Shown here piece by piece: positions 5,236-52,219 of a stretch of 64,000 bases of DNA (positions within the stretch are counted from its first letter, which is position 1; each line of letters begins with the position of its first letter). The position numbers were made by a program, and so were the translations under genes. This DNA comes from Parapedobacter soli (GTDB taxonomy: Bacteria; Bacteroidota; Bacteroidia; Sphingobacteriales; Sphingobacteriaceae). The notes below the pieces were generated by a model. That model saw only the letters and a list, made by a program, of their open reading frames with translations, had not been told where the DNA came from and did no database searches. The stretch spans positions 62,001 through 126,000 of the forward strand of contig NZ_JAMXAY010000007.1 in assembly GCF_025460835.1 (NCBI RefSeq), read 5' to 3'.

Positions 5236-5655
5236 ATGAAAACGTATCTTACCATTGCCGTTGGTCTTGTCGGAATAGCAGGACTTACTTCATGTACAAA
5301 AGAATATTATAGTCCGCCTCCAAATAAGACGTTCATCTATACCGTCTCCACCAACGATTGGGCGTGGGACGAGGGCGTGATCAATCAGATCTACCACGAC
5401 ATCGATTTGCCTGAGCTAACCGATTACTATGTGGATCAGGGGGTGGTAAGCGTATCGATAAGTGTGGACAGTGAAGTATCTTACAATATTTTGCCGGCCA
5501 CTATCATGGGTACTTCTTACTCCGTCAATTATACCACGGGTTTTGTAACCATTTATGCCGAAGACCCGATATTCGATCCCGACTACGAAGTGCCCATCCC
5601 GGATAGAACGATTAAAGTTAAAATCACGCTTTCCGAGGCGGACTACATTCCATAG
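5236..5655 (+). CDS. Small secreted lipoprotein, unknown function
   Basis: The 139-residue product begins with a lipoprotein signal (MKTYLTIAVGLVGIAGLTSC, Cys20 being the acylation site). The mature part is acidic and beta-rich, with YTVSTNDWAWDEG, VSVSISVDSEVSYNILP and IPDRTIKVKITLSEAD. The overall form resembles small lipoproteins found singly in Bacteroidota genomes. I cannot assign a function. It stands alone between divergent and convergent neighbours and is followed by a shared terminator. Confidence 0.75.
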   Translation: MKTYLTIAVGLVGIAGLTSCTKEYYSPPPNKTFIYTVSTNDWAWDEGVINQIYHDIDLPELTDYYVDQGVVSVSISVDSEVSYNILPATIMGTSYSVNYTTGFVTIYAEDPIFDPDYEVPIPDRTIKVKITLSEADYIP

Positions 5656-41751: not shown

Positions 41752-43254
41752 ATGGAACTTGACAAACGATATTACATCAACGTGGGCCCGGGCGGCACCT
41801 TCAAGCCCTCTGGTGATGCCCAATATGACACCACTGCAAAACATGTAGATGCCTTGATCGATAAATTGAGGGCAGACCAACAGCAACGCGTGCTGCTATA
41901 TTTCCACGGTGGGCTCGTCGGGTTGAAATCGGGCATGGAGGTGGCAGAGCGTATCCATCGCTACACGGCGGGCGCCAATGTCCATCCCGTTACCTTCGTC
42001 TGGGAAACCGGTTTGTTCAACGCTATCGGCGAAAACCTGTCGGTTATCCACAAATCGAAGTTCTTCAAGAAACTGCTTATCAAAATCATCAAAATCGCTG
42101 GTAAGGAGCTTGGGGTCGACATTGATAATCTACTGGCGGGGAGCAAGGGAATCGGGCAAATGTCCGATGAAGAAATCGCCCGCGAATTGCAAAAAGATGC
42201 TCCTTTTGAAGTGACTTCCGTCGATCCGACGAAAAAATCGGCTTCGTTACGCCTGGACGACGAGACGCAGATCAGCGATGCGTATATCGACACCGTCGTC
42301 AAAAATGAGGTGGAGGCCGGTTTGAGCGAAGAGATAGCCGATGACCTGGAACTCATCCACCTTGCTGAAACAGAAAAGCCCTCCGAAGAGGCACTACTCA
42401 TGAACCCCGCATATAGCGGCGGCTTGGCAACGGAAGGTGAAAAAGGAATTATCTCTCTTGCACTACTGATCAAGAGCGCCGTGCGCATTACGCTTCGCGT
42501 CATCAAACGCCACATCCGGAAACGCGACCATGGCTTCTACCCCACTGTCATCGAAGAAACACTCAGGGAAATCTACATCAACGACCTCGGTGCATGGGTA
42601 TGGGGAGCCATGAAAGATAAAGCCAAACGGATGTGGGCCAACGACGACTTCAGTGGCGAGCCAGAGAAATGGCATGCGGGAAGCTATCTCCTGGACCGGC
42701 TCAACGCCTATCAAGACGAGATCGGGTCACCGCTGACAATTGATTTAATTGGGCATTCGGCCGGTTCTATCGCTATCTGCCATTTGTTCGACGCCGTCAA
42801 AGAACGCTATAGCGGGCTCCGTTTCCGAAACCTCGTATTCATGGCCCCAGCCTGCCGGTGCGAATTGTTTAACCAATCAATTCTGCAAAACCAAGAGCTT
42901 TACGACCATATCCGGGTATTCACCATGCTGGATGATTACGAGCGCAAAGATCAACTAGCTTCCAAGCTCTACCCACGGTCGCTATTGTATTTTATTTCGG
43001 GCGTATTGGAAGATGGCGAATACGATGCGCCGATATTAGGGCTTCAACGGCATATTACGGATAACGCGCCATACGATAAAATACCGCTTTTACAGTCTAT
43101 AAGCCACTATTTAGAACAAGAGCGCAGAATGGTGTATGCCGTTACGGATGCGACCGCGGCCGAGGGCTTTCGCTCTGGTTCCATCAGGCATGGCGATTTT
43201 GACAACGACAAGGAAGCCACGTTGGACAGCATCATCGCCATCATCAAAAACTAA
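41752..43254 (+). CDS. Alpha/beta hydrolase (lipase/esterase-like) of the protease cassette
   Basis: The 500-residue protein has an oxyanion-type strand LLYFHGGLVG (residues 48-57) and a nucleophile elbow IDLIGHSAGSIA with Ser336. Candidates for the remaining triad are Asp394/395 (TMLDDYERKD) and His480 (RHGDFDND). A large insertion (about residues 95-310), rich in charged residues and with one amphipathic or hydrophobic stretch (IISLALLIKSAVRITLRV), separates the two halves and could act as a lid or membrane-contact element. No signal peptide is seen. Function within the cassette is unknown; a lipid or ester hydrolase effector is one possibility. The following gene starts 4 bases after its stop. 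Confidence 0.72.
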   Translation: MELDKRYYINVGPGGTFKPSGDAQYDTTAKHVDALIDKLRADQQQRVLLYFHGGLVGLKSGMEVAERIHRYTAGANVHPVTFVWETGLFNAIGENLSVIHKSKFFKKLLIKIIKIAGKELGVDIDNLLAGSKGIGQMSDEEIARELQKDAPFEVTSVDPTKKSASLRLDDETQISDAYIDTVVKNEVEAGLSEEIADDLELIHLAETEKPSEEALLMNPAYSGGLATEGEKGIISLALLIKSAVRITLRVIKRHIRKRDHGFYPTVIEETLREIYINDLGAWVWGAMKDKAKRMWANDDFSGEPEKWHAGSYLLDRLNAYQDEIGSPLTIDLIGHSAGSIAICHLFDAVKERYSGLRFRNLVFMAPACRCELFNQSILQNQELYDHIRVFTMLDDYERKDQLASKLYPRSLLYFISGVLEDGEYDAPILGLQRHITDNAPYDKIPLLQSISHYLEQERRMVYAVTDATAAEGFRSGSIRHGDFDNDKEATLDSIIAIIKN

Positions 43255-43258
43255 CGCT

Positions 43259-44272
43259 ATGGCAAACGATCTTGACTATGCCATTATCATCGGCATTGAA
43301 CACTATCGCGGAAGCTTAAACCAATTAAGCGGCCCCCACCAAGATTCCCAACAATTCAGGGATTGGGCATTGAGCGAACGCGGTGGGGATATTCCGAAAG
43401 ACAACATCAAAGAGCTTTATTCAACCGCGGATTACACCCCGATAAAAGACGACATTGATGATTGGCTGGGCAGCACATTGGAACAGCTGACGCTGGAAAA
43501 CAAGCGGGGGCGCCGGCTGTACCTTTATTTTTCCGGCCATGGTATCGGCTCCTCGCAGCGCAACTCGGCACTTTTACTACCCAAATGGTCGCATTCCAAC
43601 AGGCAATATGGACTTGCATCTGAAAAATACCTGGACGAGCTCGCAGCCAACGGATCATTCCGGGAGATTTATATCTTCTTAGATTGCTGCCGAAACCGCA
43701 TTACCAACGTTTCGGGTTCGCCCCCTTTCTTTTCAAGCGCCAAACCGTCGTCAAATCCATGCGAATACCTGGTCTTTTACGCTACCGAATTTGACAATTT
43801 TGCATACGAGGGCGCCACTACCACCACGCTGGACAACCTATTGCCGAGAGGACTGTTTACCGAGGTGTTGCTGACCGGTTTAAATGGTGCCGCCGCCGAT
43901 AAAGACGGCAGGCTACTATTGGGTAATCTGATCAACTACGTAAAACGGGTATTGCCCCAGCTGGCCCAAGCCAGAAAAAAAGCGCAGGTACCCCGAACCG
44001 AAACATCCATAGACGACCACAATAAATTACTAGCGCCGCCATTTGAGAAAAAAGTACAGATGAAGATACGGTTCAGCACTGCCGATGGAGCAGCCGCGGT
44101 ACTGGAAGATACCGATTTAGAAGTTGTGCATACCGGCTTCACAGACGATGGGGAGTGGGATGTAATGCTTACGCGAGGTTTCCACGTTGTCCGGAGAGCC
44201 GATAAAGATACCGGTGTGTTCTTTTATGTAGACGGCATCAATAAAGAACTGATCATTAACGAGCTTAGTTAA
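43259..44272 (+). CDS. Second caspase-like (C14) protease
   Basis: The 337-residue protein begins MANDLDYAIIIGIEHY, a typical first strand of caspase-fold domains. The catalytic dyad is His94 (YLYFSGHGIG) and Cys144 in IFLDCCRNR, the DxCR form common in bacterial caspase homologues. The protease domain covers about residues 1-260. The remaining 75 residues form a small beta-rich domain (MKIRFSTADG, EWDVMLTRGFHVV) that could bind a partner. The ATG at 43259 is used; an upstream in-frame start would run through the preceding gene. It lies 19 bases before the next gene. Confidence 0.85.
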   Translation: MANDLDYAIIIGIEHYRGSLNQLSGPHQDSQQFRDWALSERGGDIPKDNIKELYSTADYTPIKDDIDDWLGSTLEQLTLENKRGRRLYLYFSGHGIGSSQRNSALLLPKWSHSNRQYGLASEKYLDELAANGSFREIYIFLDCCRNRITNVSGSPPFFSSAKPSSNPCEYLVFYATEFDNFAYEGATTTTLDNLLPRGLFTEVLLTGLNGAAADKDGRLLLGNLINYVKRVLPQLAQARKKAQVPRTETSIDDHNKLLAPPFEKKVQMKIRFSTADGAAAVLEDTDLEVVHTGFTDDGEWDVMLTRGFHVVRRADKDTGVFFYVDGINKELIINELS

Positions 44273-44291
44273 GCCTTAGAAAAGCGAAGTC

Positions 44292-45815
44292 ATGCAGAAG
44301 TACAAGTTTAATTTCTCCATCAATATTCCCAGTGATCTCGGGAAACTAACCCACCTCAAACTCTTCAACGGTTACAACAAATTGATCTGCGATCAGTATG
44401 ACAATATTGATACCGAAGTAGATAAAGGCATTTACCAGCTGCGGATTGAAATCAATGAACATGTAGAAGACCGCATGTATCGCATAGCCGGAGATACCTA
44501 CGACCAGATCGACACCATCGACTCCTCCTCTTCCGTCCCTATCCCCGGACTAAGCTCCACCCACGAATATTTCTCCTACCCTTCGCAAGACTGGAGCGTC
44601 AAATCAACAATTGATAGCGACAAAAACATTAAAGGAAGCTCCATCTTCTTGTTTATCCGGTACGAGGACGATTCGGTCCCCTTTGAGGAAGTGCACGGAT
44701 TTGAAAAGAATTTTACAATCCTAAATTCCAAGCGCAAGCCCATATATCAGTTATCAGACACAAACACACACATAGATGCCGGGGAGGGTAGCAGTTATTT
44801 CGGGTCGGTATCTTTCAACGTGGCGGCAGAGCCCGGACAATATTACCTACTTTACCAAAGTGACCTCTTCAGCCGTGAACTACCGATTTACGTATTTGAA
44901 AATTACCAGACGCAACTCTTCATGAACTTCAATCAGGCACCCATTTTCGGAAGCGTGAAGATCATGTTGGGGCAATCAGGGTTCGATGCATTCAATTTTG
45001 AGACCATGCAATTGGACGGCCTAACCCTGAAGATGTTCAATGGCATTATGGTATTCCCTGAAGATTTAAGGTCATACGCCCTCAGTGGCCAGTGGGCAAA
45101 CCCCATGCTGGGCATTATCGGCTTATATTTATACCTCCTTTCAAAAGGTGAGAAAGACGAGCTGTTTTTCGATCTGTACCTGTCTAATTTGGCACTCAAA
45201 CTGGACAACGACTACAGCTCGCCCGATTTGAGGGCCCTCCGGCTGATGGGAGCAGTGTTGTTCAAAAGTCCGATTCCGGAGGAGCCGCTTCTGTACCCTA
45301 CCATGGTTGCCAGGGGTATGCAGGCCTATTTGACCCAATCAATAGCGCACGAGTCTCTCATTAAGAAAGACAGTATCATTGAATCCATCCTCACCAACAT
45401 GAAGGCCGATTCGATCTGGACATCATATACGCCGCTACCCATCAAAGAAACAGTGAAACGGAGAAGAAAATCGAGGGCTGCAAAGCCCAAAGGCTATACC
45501 ACCAGCGGTGCCGATTTCGATATCTCTGATTTTGTCATAGAAGCTGCCCTGCCACAGGCCACCGTCGTTGACGACAACAAATGGATAACCGACAGCATAT
45601 TTAACCAGCTGGCCGAAAATCCCAAACGCCGCTACAGCATTGCAGAGCTAGCCCGGCAAATGCAGGTGACTCCCCATACCATCCGGAAATCCCTCAAAAT
45701 CTTAAAAAATCAGAACGTTTTGGAACGGATGGCTACCTCGCTCGATGACTCAGGCATAGACCTGACCACACCTAAGCTGGGTGAAATCCGCGGCAGACTC
45801 GATAGCATCAGGTAA
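44292..45815 (+). CDS. Cassette protein with helical middle region and C-terminal winged helix
   Basis: I do not recognise the first 425 residues. Residues 1-230 look beta-rich (FNFSINIPSDLG; GIYQLRIEINEH; PGQYYLLYQSDLF). Residues 270-360 are helical, with NPMLGIIGLYLYLLSKG and SSPDLRALRLMGAVL. A basic linker (KRRRKSRAAKPKG, about 395) leads to a winged helix (430-482; KRRYSIAELARQMQVTPHTI). It may be a sensor or adaptor whose helical part meets the caspases, and an autoregulator through the winged helix; both are inferred. It is the last gene of the cassette. Confidence 0.7.
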   Translation: MQKYKFNFSINIPSDLGKLTHLKLFNGYNKLICDQYDNIDTEVDKGIYQLRIEINEHVEDRMYRIAGDTYDQIDTIDSSSSVPIPGLSSTHEYFSYPSQDWSVKSTIDSDKNIKGSSIFLFIRYEDDSVPFEEVHGFEKNFTILNSKRKPIYQLSDTNTHIDAGEGSSYFGSVSFNVAAEPGQYYLLYQSDLFSRELPIYVFENYQTQLFMNFNQAPIFGSVKIMLGQSGFDAFNFETMQLDGLTLKMFNGIMVFPEDLRSYALSGQWANPMLGIIGLYLYLLSKGEKDELFFDLYLSNLALKLDNDYSSPDLRALRLMGAVLFKSPIPEEPLLYPTMVARGMQAYLTQSIAHESLIKKDSIIESILTNMKADSIWTSYTPLPIKETVKRRRKSRAAKPKGYTTSGADFDISDFVIEAALPQATVVDDNKWITDSIFNQLAENPKRRYSIAELARQMQVTPHTIRKSLKILKNQNVLERMATSLDDSGIDLTTPKLGEIRGRLDSIR

Positions 45816-46110: not shown

Positions 46111-47244
46111 TTGGTTATAGCTGTTGTCAAAGAAAGCAAGATACTCGAGCGCCGGGTGGCCCTCACCCCCGATGCGGCCAAAGTATTGGTAAAGGCCGGT
46201 TTCACCTGCCTCTTGGAGGCGGGTGCCGGGGTGGCTTCGGGATTCGATGATAGTAATTACGAAGCCGTTGGCGTGACGGTTTCACCTGACAAGGATGAGC
46301 TCTTGCATCGGGCCGATGCGCTGCTCAAGGTGAACGCACCCACGGATACGGAATTGGAAATGCTCCAAGATGGCGCCGTAACACTCTCTTTCCTCTATGC
46401 ACATACCGTACCCGAGTTGCTACGTACTTATGCCAAAAAGCGGGTTTCGGCTTTCGCCATGGATGCTATCCCCCGGATATCGCACGCCCAAAAAATGGAC
46501 GCCCTGAGTTCGCAGACCAACCTGGCGGGTTATAAGGCCGTGCTCTTGGGCGCCAACTCACTCGGAAAAATATTTCCATTGCTGATGACGGCCGCAGGGA
46601 CCATCCGGCCGGCCAGGGTACTGGTATTCGGTGCCGGCGTGGCGGGGTTGCAGGCCGTTGCCACCGCCAGGCGGCTGGGAGCGGTGGTGGAAGTCACAGA
46701 CGTACGGCCGGAGACCAAAGAGCAGGTGGAGTCGCTGGGCGGGAGGTTCCTGCAGGTAGCCGGCGGCGGCGTGGAGACCACCGGCGGCTATGCCAGCGAG
46801 GTGTCTGCCGAGTACCTTCAAAAGCAGAAAGACCTAGTAGCCAAGCATGTGGCCGAGGCCGACCTGATCATTACCACTGCATTGGTGATCGGCAAAAAGG
46901 CACCGTTGCTCATCACACAGGAGATGGTAAAAACGATGAAACGCGGTGCCGTCATCGTTGATATGGCCGTTGAATCGGGCGGCAACTGTGAATTGAGCGA
47001 ACCCGGCGAGACCGTGGTCAAACACGGCGTAACCATCATCGGCGAGACCAACCTCCCTGCATTGCTGGCTGTCAACGCAAGCGAACTCTATGCCCGCAAC
47101 ATCAGTACGTTACTGCTCCACCTGACCGATAACGGCCATTTTAAGTGGGAGCTGGACGAAGAGATCACCAAAGGTGCACTGATTATGCACAACGGCAAGC
47201 TGGTACATGCATTCACCAAAGAATTATTAAATACCGAAATATGA
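46111..47244 (+). CDS. pntAA: NAD(P) transhydrogenase subunit alpha, part 1 (NAD-binding)
   Basis: The proton-translocating transhydrogenase transfers hydride between NADH and NADP. This 377-residue soluble domain I has the alanine-dehydrogenase-like N-terminus (VVKESKILERRVALTPDAAK), the Rossmann motif FGAGVAGLQAVATARRLGA and the downstream VDMAVESGGNCE. The start is TTG behind a purine-rich AAAAAGGGGG (46096-46105). No ATG lies close. The stop overlaps pntAB as ATGA. The subunit is split into AA and AB, the usual form in many bacteria. It lies 79 bases after the rplI fragment. Confidence 0.95.
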   Translation: MVIAVVKESKILERRVALTPDAAKVLVKAGFTCLLEAGAGVASGFDDSNYEAVGVTVSPDKDELLHRADALLKVNAPTDTELEMLQDGAVTLSFLYAHTVPELLRTYAKKRVSAFAMDAIPRISHAQKMDALSSQTNLAGYKAVLLGANSLGKIFPLLMTAAGTIRPARVLVFGAGVAGLQAVATARRLGAVVEVTDVRPETKEQVESLGGRFLQVAGGGVETTGGYASEVSAEYLQKQKDLVAKHVAEADLIITTALVIGKKAPLLITQEMVKTMKRGAVIVDMAVESGGNCELSEPGETVVKHGVTIIGETNLPALLAVNASELYARNISTLLLHLTDNGHFKWELDEEITKGALIMHNGKLVHAFTKELLNTEI

Positions 47245-47528
47245 CGACGGACACCTTACTTATCTTATTATACATTTTCGTGTTGGCAGGTTTCGTAGGC
47301 TTTGAACTTATCTCCAAGGTACCCCCTACCCTGCACACCCCATTGCTTTCGGCTACCAACGCCATCGCGGGCATCACCATTGTGGGTGCCTTGCTGGCCT
47401 CGGGCACCCTGGGCTGGTCTATCAGCAAGCTCCTTGGCATTGCCGCCCTGTTCCTCGCCACCCTCAACGTAGTAAGCGGCTATGTAGTTACCGATCGGAT
47501 GCTTCGGATGTTTAAACGGAAGAAATGA
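47241..47528 (+). CDS. pntAB: NAD(P) transhydrogenase subunit alpha, part 2 (membrane)
   Basis: The 95-residue protein has three membrane helices (about residues 4-22, 37-58 and 62-82). The sequence between them, FVGFELISKVPPTLHTPLLS, is the PntA membrane-domain signature. It forms part of the proton channel with PntB. The start ATG overlaps the pntAA stop; pntB follows one base after its stop. Confidence 0.95.
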   Translation: MTTDTLLILLYIFVLAGFVGFELISKVPPTLHTPLLSATNAIAGITIVGALLASGTLGWSISKLLGIAALFLATLNVVSGYVVTDRMLRMFKRKK

Positions 47529-47529
47529 T

Positions 47530-48933
47530 ATGGATATCCCTTTGCTTATACATCTAGCCTATCTCATCGCGGCCATCTTGTTCATCGTTGGCATTAAACT
47601 GCTGGGCCGGCCCAGCACCGCACGGCGGGGCAACACCCTTTCCGCTGCGGCTATGTTCATCGCCATTGTTGCAACGCTGCTCAACCAGCAGGTGCTGAGC
47701 TACACCGAGATTGCCGTCACCGTGCTTGTTGCATCCACCATCGGTATTTACGCTGCACGTAAGGTAGCCATGACGGCCATGCCCGAGATGATCGCTCTGC
47801 TCAACGGTTTCGGGGGTCTGGCTTCCGCACTGGTATCCACGTCGGAGTATTGGCGTATGACGCAGGAGGGCGATTTCGAGGCCATCCATTCTGCGGTGGG
47901 CATCAGCATGGCACTGAGTATCGTAATCGGGGCTGTTACCTTTTCGGGGTCTATGGTTGCATTCGGCAAACTAAGGGGCCTCGTTAGCGGCAAGTCGGTT
48001 ACCTTCCGCGGCCAGCAAGTGTTGAATGCCTTGTTATTATGCGTGGCCATCGCTTGCTCTGTGATGCTGGTGGTGCATCCCGAGACCCACACTTGGGTGC
48101 TCAGCCTGCTTGGGGTGGCATTGGTATTGGGCATATTGGCTGTAATACCCATCGGCGGGGCTGATATGCCTGTCGTCATCGCTCTGCTCAATTCGTACAC
48201 CGGCATTGCCGCGGCCGCTACCGGGTTCGTGCTGAACAACCACATGCTCATCATCACGGGTGCGTTGGTGGGTGCAGCGGGGCTCATTCTCACCCAGATT
48301 ATGTGCAAAGCCATGAACCGGTCGCTTATCAGTGTGGTGTTGGGTGGTTTCGGGCAAACCACCTCGTCGGCCGAAGCCGAGGCCAATGATATCGTGGTGA
48401 AGGAAATCGGCACGGAAGAAAGTGCCATGCTGTTCGACTCTGTTTCTTCGGTAATCATCGTACCAGGGTATGGCATGGCGGTTGCCCAGGCACAACATGC
48501 GGTGCGCGAACTCGCCGAGCTGCTCGAAGAGCGGGGCGTTTCCGTCAGATTCGCCATCCATCCCGTAGCGGGGCGTATGCCCGGCCACATGAACGTGCTG
48601 CTGGCCGAAGCCAACATCCCGTACGATAAACTGGTGGAGATGGAACGAATCAACGACGAGTTTGCCTCCACAGACATTGCCCTGGTCATCGGAGCAAATG
48701 ATGTGGTAAACCCTGCCGCCAAGACAAACCCCAACAGCCCTATTTTCGGGATGCCCGTGCTCCACGTAGAAAATGCGCAGACGGTCATCGTTTGTAAACG
48801 CGGGATGAGTGCCGGTTATGCCGGTATTGAAAACGAGCTATTCGGCTACCCGAACTGCTTGATGCTGTTCGGTGATGCTAAAGCAACTATCACAGAAGTG
48901 GTTAACGAGCTCGCCGACCACCACCAAAGGTAG
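47530..48933 (+). CDS. pntB: NAD(P) transhydrogenase subunit beta
   Basis: The 467-residue protein has about nine membrane helices (residues 1-260) followed by the NADP-binding domain III: SVIIVPGYGMAVAQAQHAVR, FAIHPVAGRMPGHMNVLLAE, ALVIGANDVVNPAA and MSAGYAGIENELF. Together with PntAA and PntAB it completes the transhydrogenase, which supplies NADPH for biosynthesis. No hairpin-plus-T-tract terminator is evident directly after it. Confidence 0.96.
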   Translation: MDIPLLIHLAYLIAAILFIVGIKLLGRPSTARRGNTLSAAAMFIAIVATLLNQQVLSYTEIAVTVLVASTIGIYAARKVAMTAMPEMIALLNGFGGLASALVSTSEYWRMTQEGDFEAIHSAVGISMALSIVIGAVTFSGSMVAFGKLRGLVSGKSVTFRGQQVLNALLLCVAIACSVMLVVHPETHTWVLSLLGVALVLGILAVIPIGGADMPVVIALLNSYTGIAAAATGFVLNNHMLIITGALVGAAGLILTQIMCKAMNRSLISVVLGGFGQTTSSAEAEANDIVVKEIGTEESAMLFDSVSSVIIVPGYGMAVAQAQHAVRELAELLEERGVSVRFAIHPVAGRMPGHMNVLLAEANIPYDKLVEMERINDEFASTDIALVIGANDVVNPAAKTNPNSPIFGMPVLHVENAQTVIVCKRGMSAGYAGIENELFGYPNCLMLFGDAKATITEVVNELADHHQR

Positions 48934-48990
48934 TCCATAATATTTGCAAACACCTGGATATAAATATATTGGATATTAAGTCTATTGTAA

Positions 48991-49284
48991 ATTACATGTA
49001 GTTAGCATCGAACTACATGTAGTTAGCATCAAACTACATGTAGTTTACCTCAAACAACATGTAGTTTATCCGAATTTACTTGTTTTCTGTTTTTGGCAAC
49101 ATGTATAATAGATCGGCCTACATGTCATCCGATACAGCATCCTTGTAGTTGTCAGAAAAAGCGATGTCATTTGAGCTGGAATACATGTCATTCAATACTA
49201 TTTACATCGCTTATTAGAAAAACTACATGTATTGTTACTTCGTCTCCTTGTTGTTCTGTCGATTTTTCATGTTTTCTTCTCCAA
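48991..49284. repeat. Array of 21-bp-phased ACATGT palindromes
   Basis: Perfect ACATGT sites occur at 48994, 49015, 49036, 49057, 49099, 49120, 49183 and 49225. Every interval is a multiple of 21. The in-phase positions without a perfect site hold related hexamers: ACTTGT at 49078, CCTTGT at 49141 and 49246, CGATGT at 49162, ACATCG at 49204 and TCATGT at 49267. The first three units are also conserved outside the core (ACTACATGTAGTT dyads). The array fills most of a 480-base gene-free stretch between pntB and the terminator at 49413. No protein frame stays open through it. An iteron-like binding array is possible. Confidence 0.8.
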
Positions 49285-49412
49285 CTTGTACCGCTTCGGT
49301 TTTAGCATACCACACCATCAAGTCCAACGCATGTCCATCTTTGTAGGTATTAAAGTCCCTTTCGGTCAAACGCAGAATTTGAGTACCAACAGAAAAAACT
49401 CCAAAAAAGAAA

Positions 49413-49452
49413 TCAAAAAAGGGTACCCAAGGATAAACTCCCTTAGGCACCC
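49413..49452 (-). terminator. Terminator of the SusC/SusD-sugar isomerase operon
   Basis: On the minus strand a stem of about 12 bp (GGGTGCCTAAGG paired with CCTTGGGTACCC, two G-T pairs) with a short loop is followed by six T residues. It lies 34 bases beyond the stop of the leftward isomerase gene at 49486. Confidence 0.85.
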
Positions 49453-49485
49453 TGGCGCCGCACTTACGGCATTGTTCTAATAGGT

Positions 49486-50484
49486 TTATGTCAACCCGCC
49501 TCCGATGCGTTCCAGCATCGCTTTGGTCTTAGCTATTCCGTCATTTGCCGTAAGGCTATGCCCCTCATACTCGATGCCCACATAACCACTAAACCCTGCG
49601 TCTTTTACCATACTGAGAATACGACCATAGTCAATGCTCGACTCGTTGCCGTCAGCATCGAAATCATACGTTTTCGCACTTATTCCCTTGGCAAAAGGCA
49701 GCAACTCCGCCGTACCTTGGTAGCGGTCATACTCTTCCAAGCACTCCGTTGCCAGGTACGCCTCGATGGTCTGCTCCGCCGGCTCGGTACGCTTGATGCA
49801 GAAATTACCGATATCCGGCAGTGTACCGCAATTGGGAAGCGCCACGGCCTCCATCACGCCGCTTAGCCACTTGCCGTTTGACGAGTAGCCACCGTGGTTT
49901 TCTACAATAACCGAGATACCGTAGTCACCGGCAAATGTCGCAAGTGCGGTGAGGCTTTCGGCGGCGCACCGCGCCACCTCTTCGGCAGTACCCTCCCCAG
50001 CTGCGTTTACCCGGATGGCATGGCAACCCAGGAATTGGGCTGCTTCCACCCATTTGTAATGGTTTTCCACAGCAACCTTTCGCTTGGCTTCGTCGGCATC
50101 GCCCAGGTCTCCTTCCAAGTCGCACATGATCAGTACGCTGGTGATGCCATTGTCATCGCACCGGCCTTTCAAGTCGCCTAGATAGGTCCGGTCGGTAGCC
50201 TTGTCTTTAAAAAATTGGTTGACATACTCGACGGCGTCTACCCCGAAATTTTCCTTCGCATAAAGCGGGAAGTCCAAATGGTCGAGCTGGCCGCCGAAGA
50301 GTGCCCGGTTCAACGACCATTCGGCAAGCGATATCTTAAAGAACAGGTCGCCACCGGTGGTTACTCCCGCCCTTTCCTCCGTTTGCCGGCCATTACATGA
50401 TAGCATGGGCGACAGGATGGGGTAGGCGGCCGCCGCCGCCATACCCATACCCAACTGCTTTACGAATTTTCTTCTGCTGTTCAT
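49486..50484 (-). CDS. Tat-exported sugar phosphate isomerase/epimerase
   Basis: The 332-residue protein starts with a twin-arginine signal (NSRRKFVKQLGMG, then a hydrophobic Ala-rich run) ending in LSC, which suggests a Tat-exported lipoprotein. The body is a xylose-isomerase-like TIM barrel with VIVENHGGYSSNGKW, PDIGNFCIK and the final GYVGIEYEGH metal-site strand. I use the ATG at 50484; longer in-frame starts extend into the SusD coding region. As the last gene of the sigma/FecR/SusC/SusD locus it probably acts on the sugar or keto-sugar that this locus imports. Confidence 0.85.
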   Translation of the reverse strand: MNSRRKFVKQLGMGMAAAAAYPILSPMLSCNGRQTEERAGVTTGGDLFFKISLAEWSLNRALFGGQLDHLDFPLYAKENFGVDAVEYVNQFFKDKATDRTYLGDLKGRCDDNGITSVLIMCDLEGDLGDADEAKRKVAVENHYKWVEAAQFLGCHAIRVNAAGEGTAEEVARCAAESLTALATFAGDYGISVIVENHGGYSSNGKWLSGVMEAVALPNCGTLPDIGNFCIKRTEPAEQTIEAYLATECLEEYDRYQGTAELLPFAKGISAKTYDFDADGNESSIDYGRILSMVKDAGFSGYVGIEYEGHSLTANDGIAKTKAMLERIGGGLT

Positions 50485-50503
50485 TGTTGCAGATTTAATG
50501 ATC

Positions 50504-52219
50504 CTAGTTTTGTACCAACGCCCCCCCACTCCGGTCGATCTGCTCTTGCGGGATGGGGAAGTAGTTGTTCTTTTCCGTGAATTGGAGCCCCCGATAGGAG
50601 CTGATGAGGCTGCCCTCAAAGTTAGAATAACGTTCCAACACTTCCTTAGCTATACCCCAGCGCACCAGGTCGAAGAACCGGTGACCTTCAAGGGCCAGCT
50701 CCAACCGGCGCTCAAAGCGGATGGCATTCAGCGCGTATGCTTTGTCGGGGAACGCTGGGTAGGGCTGCACATTGTAGGCGGCTACGGGGGTACCCCCTAC
50801 CGATTTAGGCGGCAGCTTAGCTGCCCTGGCACGCACGTTATTCACCCGCGCCAGCGCGTATGCCAGATCGCCCGTTTCCGCTGCACACTCCGCGGCCATC
50901 AGGTACACATCGGCCAAACGGATGATATTTACGTTCAACGACGTAACGTAGTTGGTACCGCCCGATTGTGTGTTACCCGGGAAATCCGCTTGGTCAATCA
51001 TATGTTTATAACCTACAAAGGGCCCTCCAAACGCGGGGTCGCGCAGCCACGGGTCACCCGGCATAATGCCCCAATCGTGGTACGGAACCCCTCTGCGCCC
51101 AACGGTGTAGTCGACCCGCGGATCGATAGCCAGCGTATTATCTACCGTATAATCATCCTTGGCATCACCTGTAAGGCCAAAGTCAGACGTATAGGGGTTG
51201 GTCTGGAAGGAGCCGTCGAGCATGGGCAGCCCCTGGGCTGTTACCCTGAACGAGTTGACCAGGTCAAAGCTGGGGTTGAAAAACCCGCAGCAGTTTGCCG
51301 GGGCCGAACCGTACAATCCGCCGAGCATGTCGCCCACATTCGCATTGTCGCCACCGCCATCGGGGTTGATGGCGTGTTGCGCCGCAAAAATAGACTCCGG
51401 TCCGTTCTCCGTATTCACATCAAAGTTATCCAAGAACGGGAGTCCTTCCAAATCCGGCCGCGCAGCGATCACCTCTTTAAAGAGTGTCAGGGCCTCGGCG
51501 TACTTCTGTTGGTAAAGGTACACCTTACCGAGGTACGATTTTGCTGCAATCTGGTTTACCCGGCCCGCGTCGCCCAGGGGTGGGTTTCCATCGGACGAGA
51601 GGTTTTGTACCGCGAATTGGAAATCGGCTTCTATCATCGGTAACACATCTATATTGTTGGGTACCTGTGCCGCATCGGTGGTAGACACCGTCTCGTCGAT
51701 GTAGGGAATGTTCTTAAACACCCGCCACAGGAAGAAATAGTAATGCCCCCGGAGCATCTTAGCCTCGGCTTCGATCTCCTTGGCCCGCTGTTCCGAAAAT
51801 TTATCGTTGGCAGTTTCCTGCACCACCTTGAGCTGCCGGAGCGTGGTATTGCAACGGGTCACACCTTCGTAATAATTGTTCCACATGGTAGACAAATGTT
51901 CATTTACGCTGATGGCCGTGTGCATCTCGATATCGAACATTACCGCCTGGTCAGCCAGTTCACTGCCTTTATGTGCGTTATCGGCTGCCACCTCGCCAAA
52001 GAGCCACTGGCTGGGAGCTGCGGCATAGTTTCCCCATGTACCATTGCGGTTGCCGTTCATCAAGCCATAGGCCCCGGTAAGCAGCCACTCAACCGCCTTG
52101 GTATTCTGCACCTGCTCATCAGCCAATTGACCCTGCGGGCTCCGTTCCAAGAAACTGTCGCTACAGGCTCCCACAGCCAACAGTACAATCAATGCGGATA
52201 TTTTATAGTATAATTTCAT
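50504..52219 (-). CDS. SusD/RagB family outer-membrane lipoprotein
   Basis: The 571-residue glycan-binding lid protein partners with the SusC porin downstream of nutrient capture at the cell surface. It has a lipoprotein signal (ending AVGAC), an early SFLERSPQGQLADEQ segment, TPR-like helices and the C-terminal SusD signature (ALNAIRFERRLELALEGHRF, FDLVRWG, then NYFPIPQEQIDRS). The length is typical. It sits 42 bases after SusC and 19 bases before the isomerase. The ligand is unknown. Confidence 0.95.
   Translation of the reverse strand: MKLYYKISALIVLLAVGACSDSFLERSPQGQLADEQVQNTKAVEWLLTGAYGLMNGNRNGTWGNYAAAPSQWLFGEVAADNAHKGSELADQAVMFDIEMHTAISVNEHLSTMWNNYYEGVTRCNTTLRQLKVVQETANDKFSEQRAKEIEAEAKMLRGHYYFFLWRVFKNIPYIDETVSTTDAAQVPNNIDVLPMIEADFQFAVQNLSSDGNPPLGDAGRVNQIAAKSYLGKVYLYQQKYAEALTLFKEVIAARPDLEGLPFLDNFDVNTENGPESIFAAQHAINPDGGGDNANVGDMLGGLYGSAPANCCGFFNPSFDLVNSFRVTAQGLPMLDGSFQTNPYTSDFGLTGDAKDDYTVDNTLAIDPRVDYTVGRRGVPYHDWGIMPGDPWLRDPAFGGPFVGYKHMIDQADFPGNTQSGGTNYVTSLNVNIIRLADVYLMAAECAAETGDLAYALARVNNVRARAAKLPPKSVGGTPVAAYNVQPYPAFPDKAYALNAIRFERRLELALEGHRFFDLVRWGIAKEVLERYSNFEGSLISSYRGLQFTEKNNYFPIPQEQIDRSGGALVQN

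What the first reader, a model, noticed from the sequence alone, without database searches (positions are those of the whole stretch)
48991..49284. ACATGT palindromes phased at exactly 21 bp over about 290 bp
Eight perfect ACATGT sites are separated by 21, 21, 21, 42, 21, 63 and 42 bases, and the empty phases hold one- or two-mismatch versions. 21 bp is two helical turns, so all sites face the same side of the DNA, as in iterons or cooperative regulator arrays. The left end is best conserved (ACTACATGTAGTT dyads) and the right end decays. A coding origin (7-codon period) is possible, but stops occur in the frames.
Basis: seen in the sequence. Interest (0 to 1): 0.65.

Follow-up and report, generated by a model that had tools for sequence, protein, structure and literature searches.

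The report
Orphan 21-bp phased palindrome array
This stretch is a stray copy of a 21-letter repeating block of DNA that elsewhere, in several bacterial phyla, sits just in front of members of a nameless protein family; the repeat length stays the same while its letters change, which points to an undescribed protein-and-DNA-array system.

Summary
In detail: 8 of 8 ACATGT sites in the 552-bp gap between pntB and an isomerase-like gene share one phase of 21 bp; 0 of 5000 dinucleotide shuffles reach that. The array is non-coding (stops in all six frames). It is an orphan copy of something larger. The same genome holds paralogous ACATGT arrays at four other places, each beside a conserved 63-nt hairpin. 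One (contig C131) lies upstream of a 204-aa protein (helical N-terminus, FN3-like C-terminus) that Pfam and NCBIfam do not name. Starting from that gene family, 26 of 30 loci carry a 21-multiple array upstream, against 0 of 26 control FN3-domain loci; in eight other genomes, including Treponema, Planctomycetaceae and Verrucomicrobia MAGs, 22 of 23 further loci do. Unit sequences differ between loci; the 21-bp period and, in 27 of 44, dyad symmetry persist, without RNA-strand bias. In the window copy the ACATGT core diverges less than the linker (9/76 versus 67/167). Best reading: phased dimer-binding sites on duplex DNA belonging to this gene module. The binding protein is unidentified.

The parts
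48994..49287 (.). Fourteen consecutive 21-bp units, each beginning at an ACATGT phase; 8 perfect cores, 6 with one or two mismatches
48989..49066 (.). Best-conserved head of the array (TRF: period 21, 3.7 copies, consensus AAACTACATGTAGTTAGCATC)
49141..49287 (.). Decayed right half of the array, still in phase; units alignable to paralogous units in C131 and C106 (unit k of the window to unit k-1)
47530..48933 (+). Left neighbour: pntB, NAD(P) transhydrogenase beta subunit (60 bp between its stop and the array)
   Evidence: Pfam PNTB E=7e-188
49486..50619 (-). Right neighbour: xylose-isomerase-like TIM-barrel protein, convergent with pntB (start codon uncertain)
   Evidence: Pfam AP_endonuc_2 E=8.1e-24
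49235..49450 (-). 71-aa open frame of doubtful status whose 3' end runs into the array; no Pfam match

Best explanation
The window array is an orphan, decaying copy of the DNA half of a two-part module: (1) a run of 21-bp units, most often dyad-symmetric, and (2) directly downstream in the complete copies, a gene of a ~205-240-aa family (helical N-terminal bundle, FN3-fold C-terminus, no evident signal peptide). Likely working (inferred): a homodimeric DNA-binding protein occupies one palindrome every two helical turns, so that all dimers lie on one face of the duplex and form a cooperative filament or platform at the 5' flank of the gene. Sequence specificity turns over quickly between loci, but spacing and symmetry are kept by the assembly. 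In this genome and its relative G008 an AraC-type regulator often lies upstream and is one candidate binder; the family protein itself is the other. Shown: array, phase, dyads, gene linkage across phyla, non-coding nature, core conservation. Inferred: protein binding, who binds, and regulation as the outcome.
For: Linkage: 26 of 30 family loci have a 21-multiple array in the upstream 1500 bp, 0 of 26 generic FN3-domain loci, 0 of 30 in the last 1500 bp of the same loci on the downstream side; 22 of 23 further loci in eight other genomes. In the reverse direction 19 of 118 loci found only by the ACATGT-N15 pattern carry a family gene at E<1e-3, in 18 of 19 with the array at its 5' side, in five of these inside the open frame that runs into the gene. 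DNA-level symmetry: 27 of 44 gene-first arrays have a unit-wide dyad at p<0.05; G.T versus A.C mismatches 283 versus 334 and no difference in RNA folding z between strands. Constraint: core ACATGT 16/240 changed versus 135/600 for the rest, summed over the three pairs of C131, C106 and C114 (p=9e-9; the pairs are not independent); C131/C106 align without gaps and C131/C114 with one 21-bp gap; window 9/76 versus 67/167 (p=3.8e-6). Regulators: Pfam-confirmed AraC-type HTH proteins upstream, co-oriented and ending within 750 bp of the array, in 7 of 28 array loci and GerE in 2, plus AraC at C131.
Against: No binding or expression data. The N-terminal half of the family protein is net neutral (median charge 0), unlike many DNA-binding domains. 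In the eight cross-phylum genomes no regulator was found upstream: 10 of 26 nearest long frames scanned by Pfam gave none, the rest were only read by eye; so AraC cannot be the general binder. Sister loci with 67% identical AraC C-terminal ends (L249/L250) have unlike units. The C106 orphan shows no significant core conservation of its own (3/78 versus 11/195). At least three of the orphans (window, C106, C143) lie between convergent genes, a poor place for an operator. Other spacings occur: L201 has a 43-bp period and L301 its best lag at 43. Dyads were not significant in 17 of 44 arrays. The free alignment of window to C131 uses gaps of 14, 7 and 21.
Confidence: 0.5

Rival explanations
1. 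A mobile or satellite element: the array (with or without its hairpin) is a MITE-like or minisatellite unit that spreads in the genome and expands by slippage; the family gene is its passenger or its helper, and the window copy is a dead insertion.
For: Five dispersed ACATGT copies (window included) plus C95 in one genome, at unrelated genes; C106 shares array and hairpin but no gene with C131 at 87%; patchy distribution (phased ACATGT in 2 of 399 family genomes; by my reading of the spans the full-length family gene in 4 of 148 phylum genomes); homogeneous arrays exist beside old ones; in the Verrucomicrobia MAG locus L138 a tyrosine recombinase lies directly upstream of the array.
Against: No common ends or target duplications were established; transposase genes were not searched systematically. 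Gene linkage is very tight. A neutral minisatellite explains neither one period across phyla, nor dyads, nor core conservation.
Confidence: 0.2
2. The array is the operator or upstream activating region of a locus-specific AraC/LuxR-type regulator that controls the linked gene; the window copy is an extra target of the C131 AraC protein.
For: AraC-type regulators upstream and co-oriented in 7 of 28 array loci, GerE in 2, and AraC at C131; L249/L250 regulators and FN3 genes are about equally diverged, 60% and 58% identical.
Against: 19 of 28 array loci gave no Pfam-confirmed regulator (only 10 upstream frames were scanned), and none of 10 scanned cross-phylum neighbours is one. Arrays of up to 46 units are long for an operator. 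The window copy is not upstream of a gene start.
Confidence: 0.2
3. Decayed coding sequence for a heptad-repeat (7-codon) peptide.
For: 21 is 7 codons; some arrays are open in one frame, such as L184, L198 or the G008 copy.
Against: 14 of 36 arrays have stops in all six frames and no frame or strand shows a consistent synonymous excess; dyads are not expected of coding DNA.
Confidence: 0.03
4. A structured or repeat RNA transcribed from the array.
For: Array transcripts fold better than dinucleotide shuffles (mean z about -3), as any palindromic repeat would; the neighbouring 63-nt hairpin is kept in five copies.
Against: Same folding gain on both strands and no G.U excess on the sense strand; pair covariation of the hairpin does not exceed its shuffles, though it exceeds slid versions; the one Rfam hit is far below its threshold.
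Confidence: 0.07

Closest known systems
BrickBuilt minisatellite/MITE of Porphyromonas gingivalis (PMC4596501; outline with abstract and seven passages read)
   Same: Tandem short units without spacers in intergenic DNA of a Bacteroidota genome, many dispersed copies, stops in frames, possible link to transcription
   Different: Unit of 23 nt, leader and tail with inverted-repeat ends, one species group, no linked protein family in what I read; here 21 bp or multiples, sequence differs by locus, linked gene family, several phyla
Plasmid iterons (from general knowledge)
   Same: Tandem sites of about two helical turns bound on one DNA face
   Different: No replication gene directly beside it; multicopy, dyad-symmetric, variable sequence
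AraC/LuxR-type operator arrays (from general knowledge)
   Same: Phased sites near a regulator gene in 9 of 28 array loci
   Different: Much longer arrays, regulator not found in the other loci, full-unit dyads
FN3-fold proteins (PDB neogenin, DCC, contactin FN3 domains)
   Same: C-terminal half of the family has the FN3 fold
   Different: The listed matches cover the FN3 part, none is reported for the helical half alone; no hydrophobic start in 38 of 39 by a crude test; no Pfam or NCBIfam family above cut-off

Membership tests
BrickBuilt-type MITE with minisatellite | 23-nt repeating unit | tested here: not met
   Unit is 21 bp
BrickBuilt-type MITE with minisatellite | Leader and tail segments with small terminal inverted repeats | tested here: inconclusive
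   A hairpin lies on one side of four own-genome copies and one in G008; the window copy has none and no right-hand end was defined
Plasmid iteron array | Adjacent replication initiator gene | tested here: not met
   Immediate neighbours are pntB and an isomerase-like gene; no Rep profile was searched further away
Plasmid iteron array | Direct repeats of about 17-22 bp in one phase | tested here: met
CRISPR array | Identical repeats separated by unique spacers of about 30 bp, with cas genes | tested here: not met
   Units are contiguous 21-mers with related linkers; cas genes were not searched
AraC-regulator operator array | Cognate regulator gene beside the sites | tested here: inconclusive
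   Present at C131 and 7 of 28 array loci, absent beside the window array
AraC-regulator operator array | Regulator binds the units | not testable with these tools
   needs gel shift or DAP-seq
21-bp array / FN3-family module (as defined here) | Array period 21 or a multiple | tested here: met
   Window period 21
21-bp array / FN3-family module (as defined here) | Family gene directly downstream | tested here: not met
   No family hit in the whole window at E<=10: orphan copy; the paralogous copy C131 has it

The most novel reading that the evidence does not exclude
A new kind of self-addressed protein-DNA module: each member of the FN3-like family recognises the dyad units of its own upstream array, so that many parallel, mutually distinct protein/array pairs live in one genome (24 and 28 family matches, fragments included, in two Treponema MAGs) and specificity turns over fast while the 21-bp geometry stays fixed, in the manner of satellite DNA and its binding proteins. 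Orphan arrays such as the window's would be trans targets or relics.
Probability: 0.25. Interest if true: 0.9.

Novelty: categorically new. Interest (0 to 1): 0.75.

Why it matters
A repeat whose length is fixed at two helical turns in several phyla while its sequence is free, and which is tied to a protein family without a name or function, is a strong sign of an unknown DNA-protein assembly. It gives a direct, testable handle: gene and array are next to each other, some genomes offer many independent pairs, and geometry and sequence can be separated by experiment. It also gives a home to minisatellites of a kind that annotation passes over.

Tried and rejected
Coding origin: rejected on stops and synonymous tests. 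RNA element: the only Rfam hit at E<=1 over 48000-50600 is mir-2941, E=0.043, 22.7 bits against a cut-off of 60, taken as chance; strand test negative. Hairpin as a conserved RNA: pair covariation did not exceed shuffles. Phage or plasmid origin of the gene: no tblastn match of the C131 protein in phages or plasmids, no relative of two single proteins in viral contigs; of four proteins PADLOC matched none, PHROGs gave an FN3-region tail-fibre match for two. A/T phasing at 10.5 bp as a curvature signal: W harmonic not raised (z -0.9); the A-minus-T skew has period 21 (z 6.1), which I ascribe to the dyads. A conserved downstream gene: five pairs of loci share some downstream frame, mostly weakly. 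Literature: of the listings of searches (capped lists; two returned no paper) none named such a module; 65 led to BrickBuilt. The library is open-access papers only, so absence there is weak evidence.

Limits of the counts: arrays were found by their in-phase segments, so in-phase figures (535 of 561 units) are biased upwards. The eight genomes were chosen because one locus each had an ACATGT array; the seven seed loci that came back are left out of the 22 of 23 (all seven have arrays). Genes C94 and C107 (broken) and C92 (contig end) were left out; C128 (two genes) and C99 (gene fragment) were tested apart there: no, no, yes. In one search the four misses are L201 (43-bp period), L202, L204 and L209 (score 19.8, below the ratio cut). 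One search uses the in-register offset of one unit, which has the highest ungapped identity to C131 (0.659 against at most 0.524 at other offsets).

Full report
WHAT WAS CLAIMED AND WHAT IS THERE. The six other phases between 48994 and 49287 hold versions with one or two mismatches. In the 552-bp gap between the pntB stop and the convergent isomerase-like gene, all 8 sites share one phase modulo 21; in 5000 dinucleotide shuffles the largest number in one phase was 2, and the lag-21 autocorrelation (0.522) exceeds the highest of any lag from 15 to 63 in 2000 shuffles (0.409). ACATGT is not over-represented in the window as a whole. All six frames contain stops. Pfam identifies pntB and the isomerase-like protein.

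COPIES IN THE SAME GENOME. A search of the window's own genome (G000, 177 contigs) finds homologous arrays on C131, C106 and C114; a pattern scan adds C143. With the window's (C145) that makes five ACATGT arrays. C131, C106, C114 and C143, and a copy in the same-genus genome G008, share a 63-nt inverted repeat with no length change. A covariance model of that hairpin finds no match in the window but finds two further places: C95 in G000 (E=0.0015), where a short 21-bp array has the palindrome CAGCTG in place of ACATGT, and C67 in G008 (E=0.02), with a 21/42-bp array of GCTAGC/GCCGGC-like palindromes. So the palindrome can change while the 21-bp frame stays. The hairpin's pair covariation does not exceed shuffles, so I make no claim that it is an RNA.

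THE LINK TO A GENE FAMILY. On C131 the array lies between an AraC-type regulator (Pfam HTH_18) and a 204-aa protein with a weak FN3 match only. That protein is multicopy: 9 of 41 genomes near G000 have matches, 30 places listed, with eight each in G000 and G008 and none in the seven other same-genus genomes. Periodicity analysis of those loci showed 21- or 42-bp arrays upstream of most. In a clean test with one rule for all, 26 of 30 family loci have a 21-multiple array in the 1500 bp upstream (the 30 are the intact genes plus three). A profile search of 148 phylum genomes gave mostly proteins that only share an FN3 domain; these serve as a control: 0 of 26. The last 1500 bp of the same 30 loci on the downstream side: 0 of 30. 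Three G000 loci tested apart gave no, no and yes.

THE REVERSE SEARCH AND OTHER PHYLA. An iterated profile of the family, searched in all 118, found a family gene in 19 at E<1e-3; in 18 of these the array is at its 5' side, the exception being L115. The records are labelled as Bacteroidota of several families, Treponema and another Spirochaetia, a Planctomycetaceae MAG and a Verrucomicrobia MAG. That many of the MAGs come from termite guts is my recollection, not a tool result. In eight of these genomes I then searched gene-first: 97 matches, among them 24 and 28 in two Treponema MAGs, fragments included. Of 30 loci returned, 7 were the seeds (all with arrays); of the other 23, 22 have a 21-multiple array upstream, the miss being L295. 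Their printed units look unlike each other.

WHAT THE ARRAYS HAVE IN COMMON. (1) Period 21, 42, 63 or 84; exceptions are L201 (43, with 22) and partly L301. (2) Dyad symmetry over the unit: 27 of 44 gene-first arrays at p<0.05 by column permutation, about 2 expected; an earlier count that includes ACATGT-selected arrays gave 38 of 48. The innermost pair is not enriched, so a short free centre is usual. (3) No strand bias: G.T and A.C mismatches in dyad pairs are 283 and 334, and predicted RNA folding gains are alike on sense and antisense (mean z -3.01 and -3.45, p=0.38). That argues for duplex DNA rather than RNA. (4) Fast turnover: unit similarity is lost between genes at 58% identity (two pairs) and for one pair at 71%, though kept for pairs at 69% and 92%.

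CONSTRAINT IN THE WINDOW COPY. Aligned by unit, C131, C106 and C114 differ, summed over their three pairs, at 16 of 240 core positions and 135 of 600 others (p=9e-9); C131/C106 align with no gap over 294 bp at 37 differences, C131/C114 with a single 21-bp gap. The window units, at an offset of one unit, differ from the common state of C131 and C106 at 9 of 76 core positions and 67 of 167 others (p=3.8e-6). Changes unique to C131 spare the core (0/78 versus 14/195), as do those of C114 (5/78 versus 33/195); C106 does not show it (3/78 versus 11/195). Some of this conservation may date from before the copy became an orphan. A free aligner puts gaps of 14, 7 and 21 between window and C131, so their register is the likeliest rather than proven.

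THE PROTEIN FAMILY. AlphaFold2 on a 12-sequence alignment (all from DNA-search loci) gives mean pLDDT 90.8 and pTM 0.51: helices (residues 11-102) and a beta sandwich (122-220). The best PDB matches are FN3 domains (neogenin, DCC, contactins); the named viral matches are largely FN3-bearing tail proteins. Pfam and NCBIfam give nothing above cut-off, PADLOC nothing, PHROGs an FN3-region tail-fibre match for two of four. Median pI of 39 members 8.5, N-terminal half net neutral, a hydrophobic start in 1 of 39 by a crude test.

MECHANISM. Palindromes with a conserved core, at exactly two helical turns, without strand preference, at the 5' flank of a gene, are what a homodimer binding cooperatively along one face of DNA would leave. 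The binder is not identified. AraC-type regulators upstream in 7 of 28 array loci, GerE-type in 2, and AraC at C131 make a regulator a fair candidate in this clade. In the eight cross-phylum genomes none of 10 upstream frames scanned by Pfam is a regulator and none stood out among the other 16 loci by eye, so the only constant partner is the FN3-family protein. I therefore give about equal weight to the family protein, a linked regulator and an unknown host factor as binder.

WHAT THE WINDOW FEATURE IS. An orphan copy: no family gene in the window, no hairpin, convergent gap, right half decayed. The only other same-genus genome with pntB (G003; 2 of 9 in all) has a kinase-like gene directly after it and no array in the stretch read (the name is my reading of the sequence).

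NOVELTY. The closest described repeat that I found is BrickBuilt (outline, abstract and passages read), which differs in unit length, ends and lack of a linked family in what I read. Seven other literature searches (two of them empty, the others capped lists) listed nothing on a 21-bp array tied to an FN3-family gene; only listings were seen. I rate the module as new in kind, with the caution that the library is open-access only and that the function is unproven.

Noticed in passing
L138 1007-2122 (+ strand): In the Verrucomicrobia MAG the frame directly before array and family gene is a 371-aa tyrosine recombinase (Phage_integrase E=4e-33 for its end; frame) that resembles integron integrases as I recall them: a possible vehicle of the module.
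   Followed up: partly
L011 (G000:C114) 5372-5529: A second, different repeat with a 63-bp (3 x 21) period beside the ACATGT array, close to the contig end: two array types in one place.
   Followed up: no
L270 (G039:C25), array at 1320-1814 counted in gene orientation: The one family-linked array with a 43-bp period (sub-period 22), that is about 21.5 bp per unit; L301 also has its best lag at 43. These may tell what helical repeat is tolerated.
   Followed up: partly
G561 and G566 (Treponema MAGs, loci L287, L293, L294, L299, L302, L306, L308): 24 and 28 matches to the family, fragments included, in genomes of about 2.5 Mb; the seven loci returned besides the seed each have an array.
   Followed up: partly
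L039 4875-5225 (- strand): The G008 array is open in one frame as a 116-aa reading frame of DYMSFVS-like heptads with an ATG; probably accidental.
   Followed up: partly
L009 4560-4594 and L010 4917-4950: The last array units encode the C-terminal residues of an AraC-type protein (C131) and of a sodium:solute symporter (C106): the array edge overlaps unrelated coding ends.
   Followed up: no
window 43136-45815: A caspase-domain (Peptidase_C14) protein directly followed by a 507-aa protein without a Pfam match at E<=1e-5; possibly a two-gene unit of its own.
   Followed up: no
window 46111-48933: A pntA/pntB transhydrogenase operon; pntB is found in only 2 of 9 genomes of the genus.
   Followed up: no
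genomes G072, G129, G195, G233, G353, G365, G368, G386: The reversed control pattern (TGTACA, also a palindrome) occurs in 21-bp phase in these 8 genomes of the same family: perhaps further arrays of this kind.
   Followed up: no
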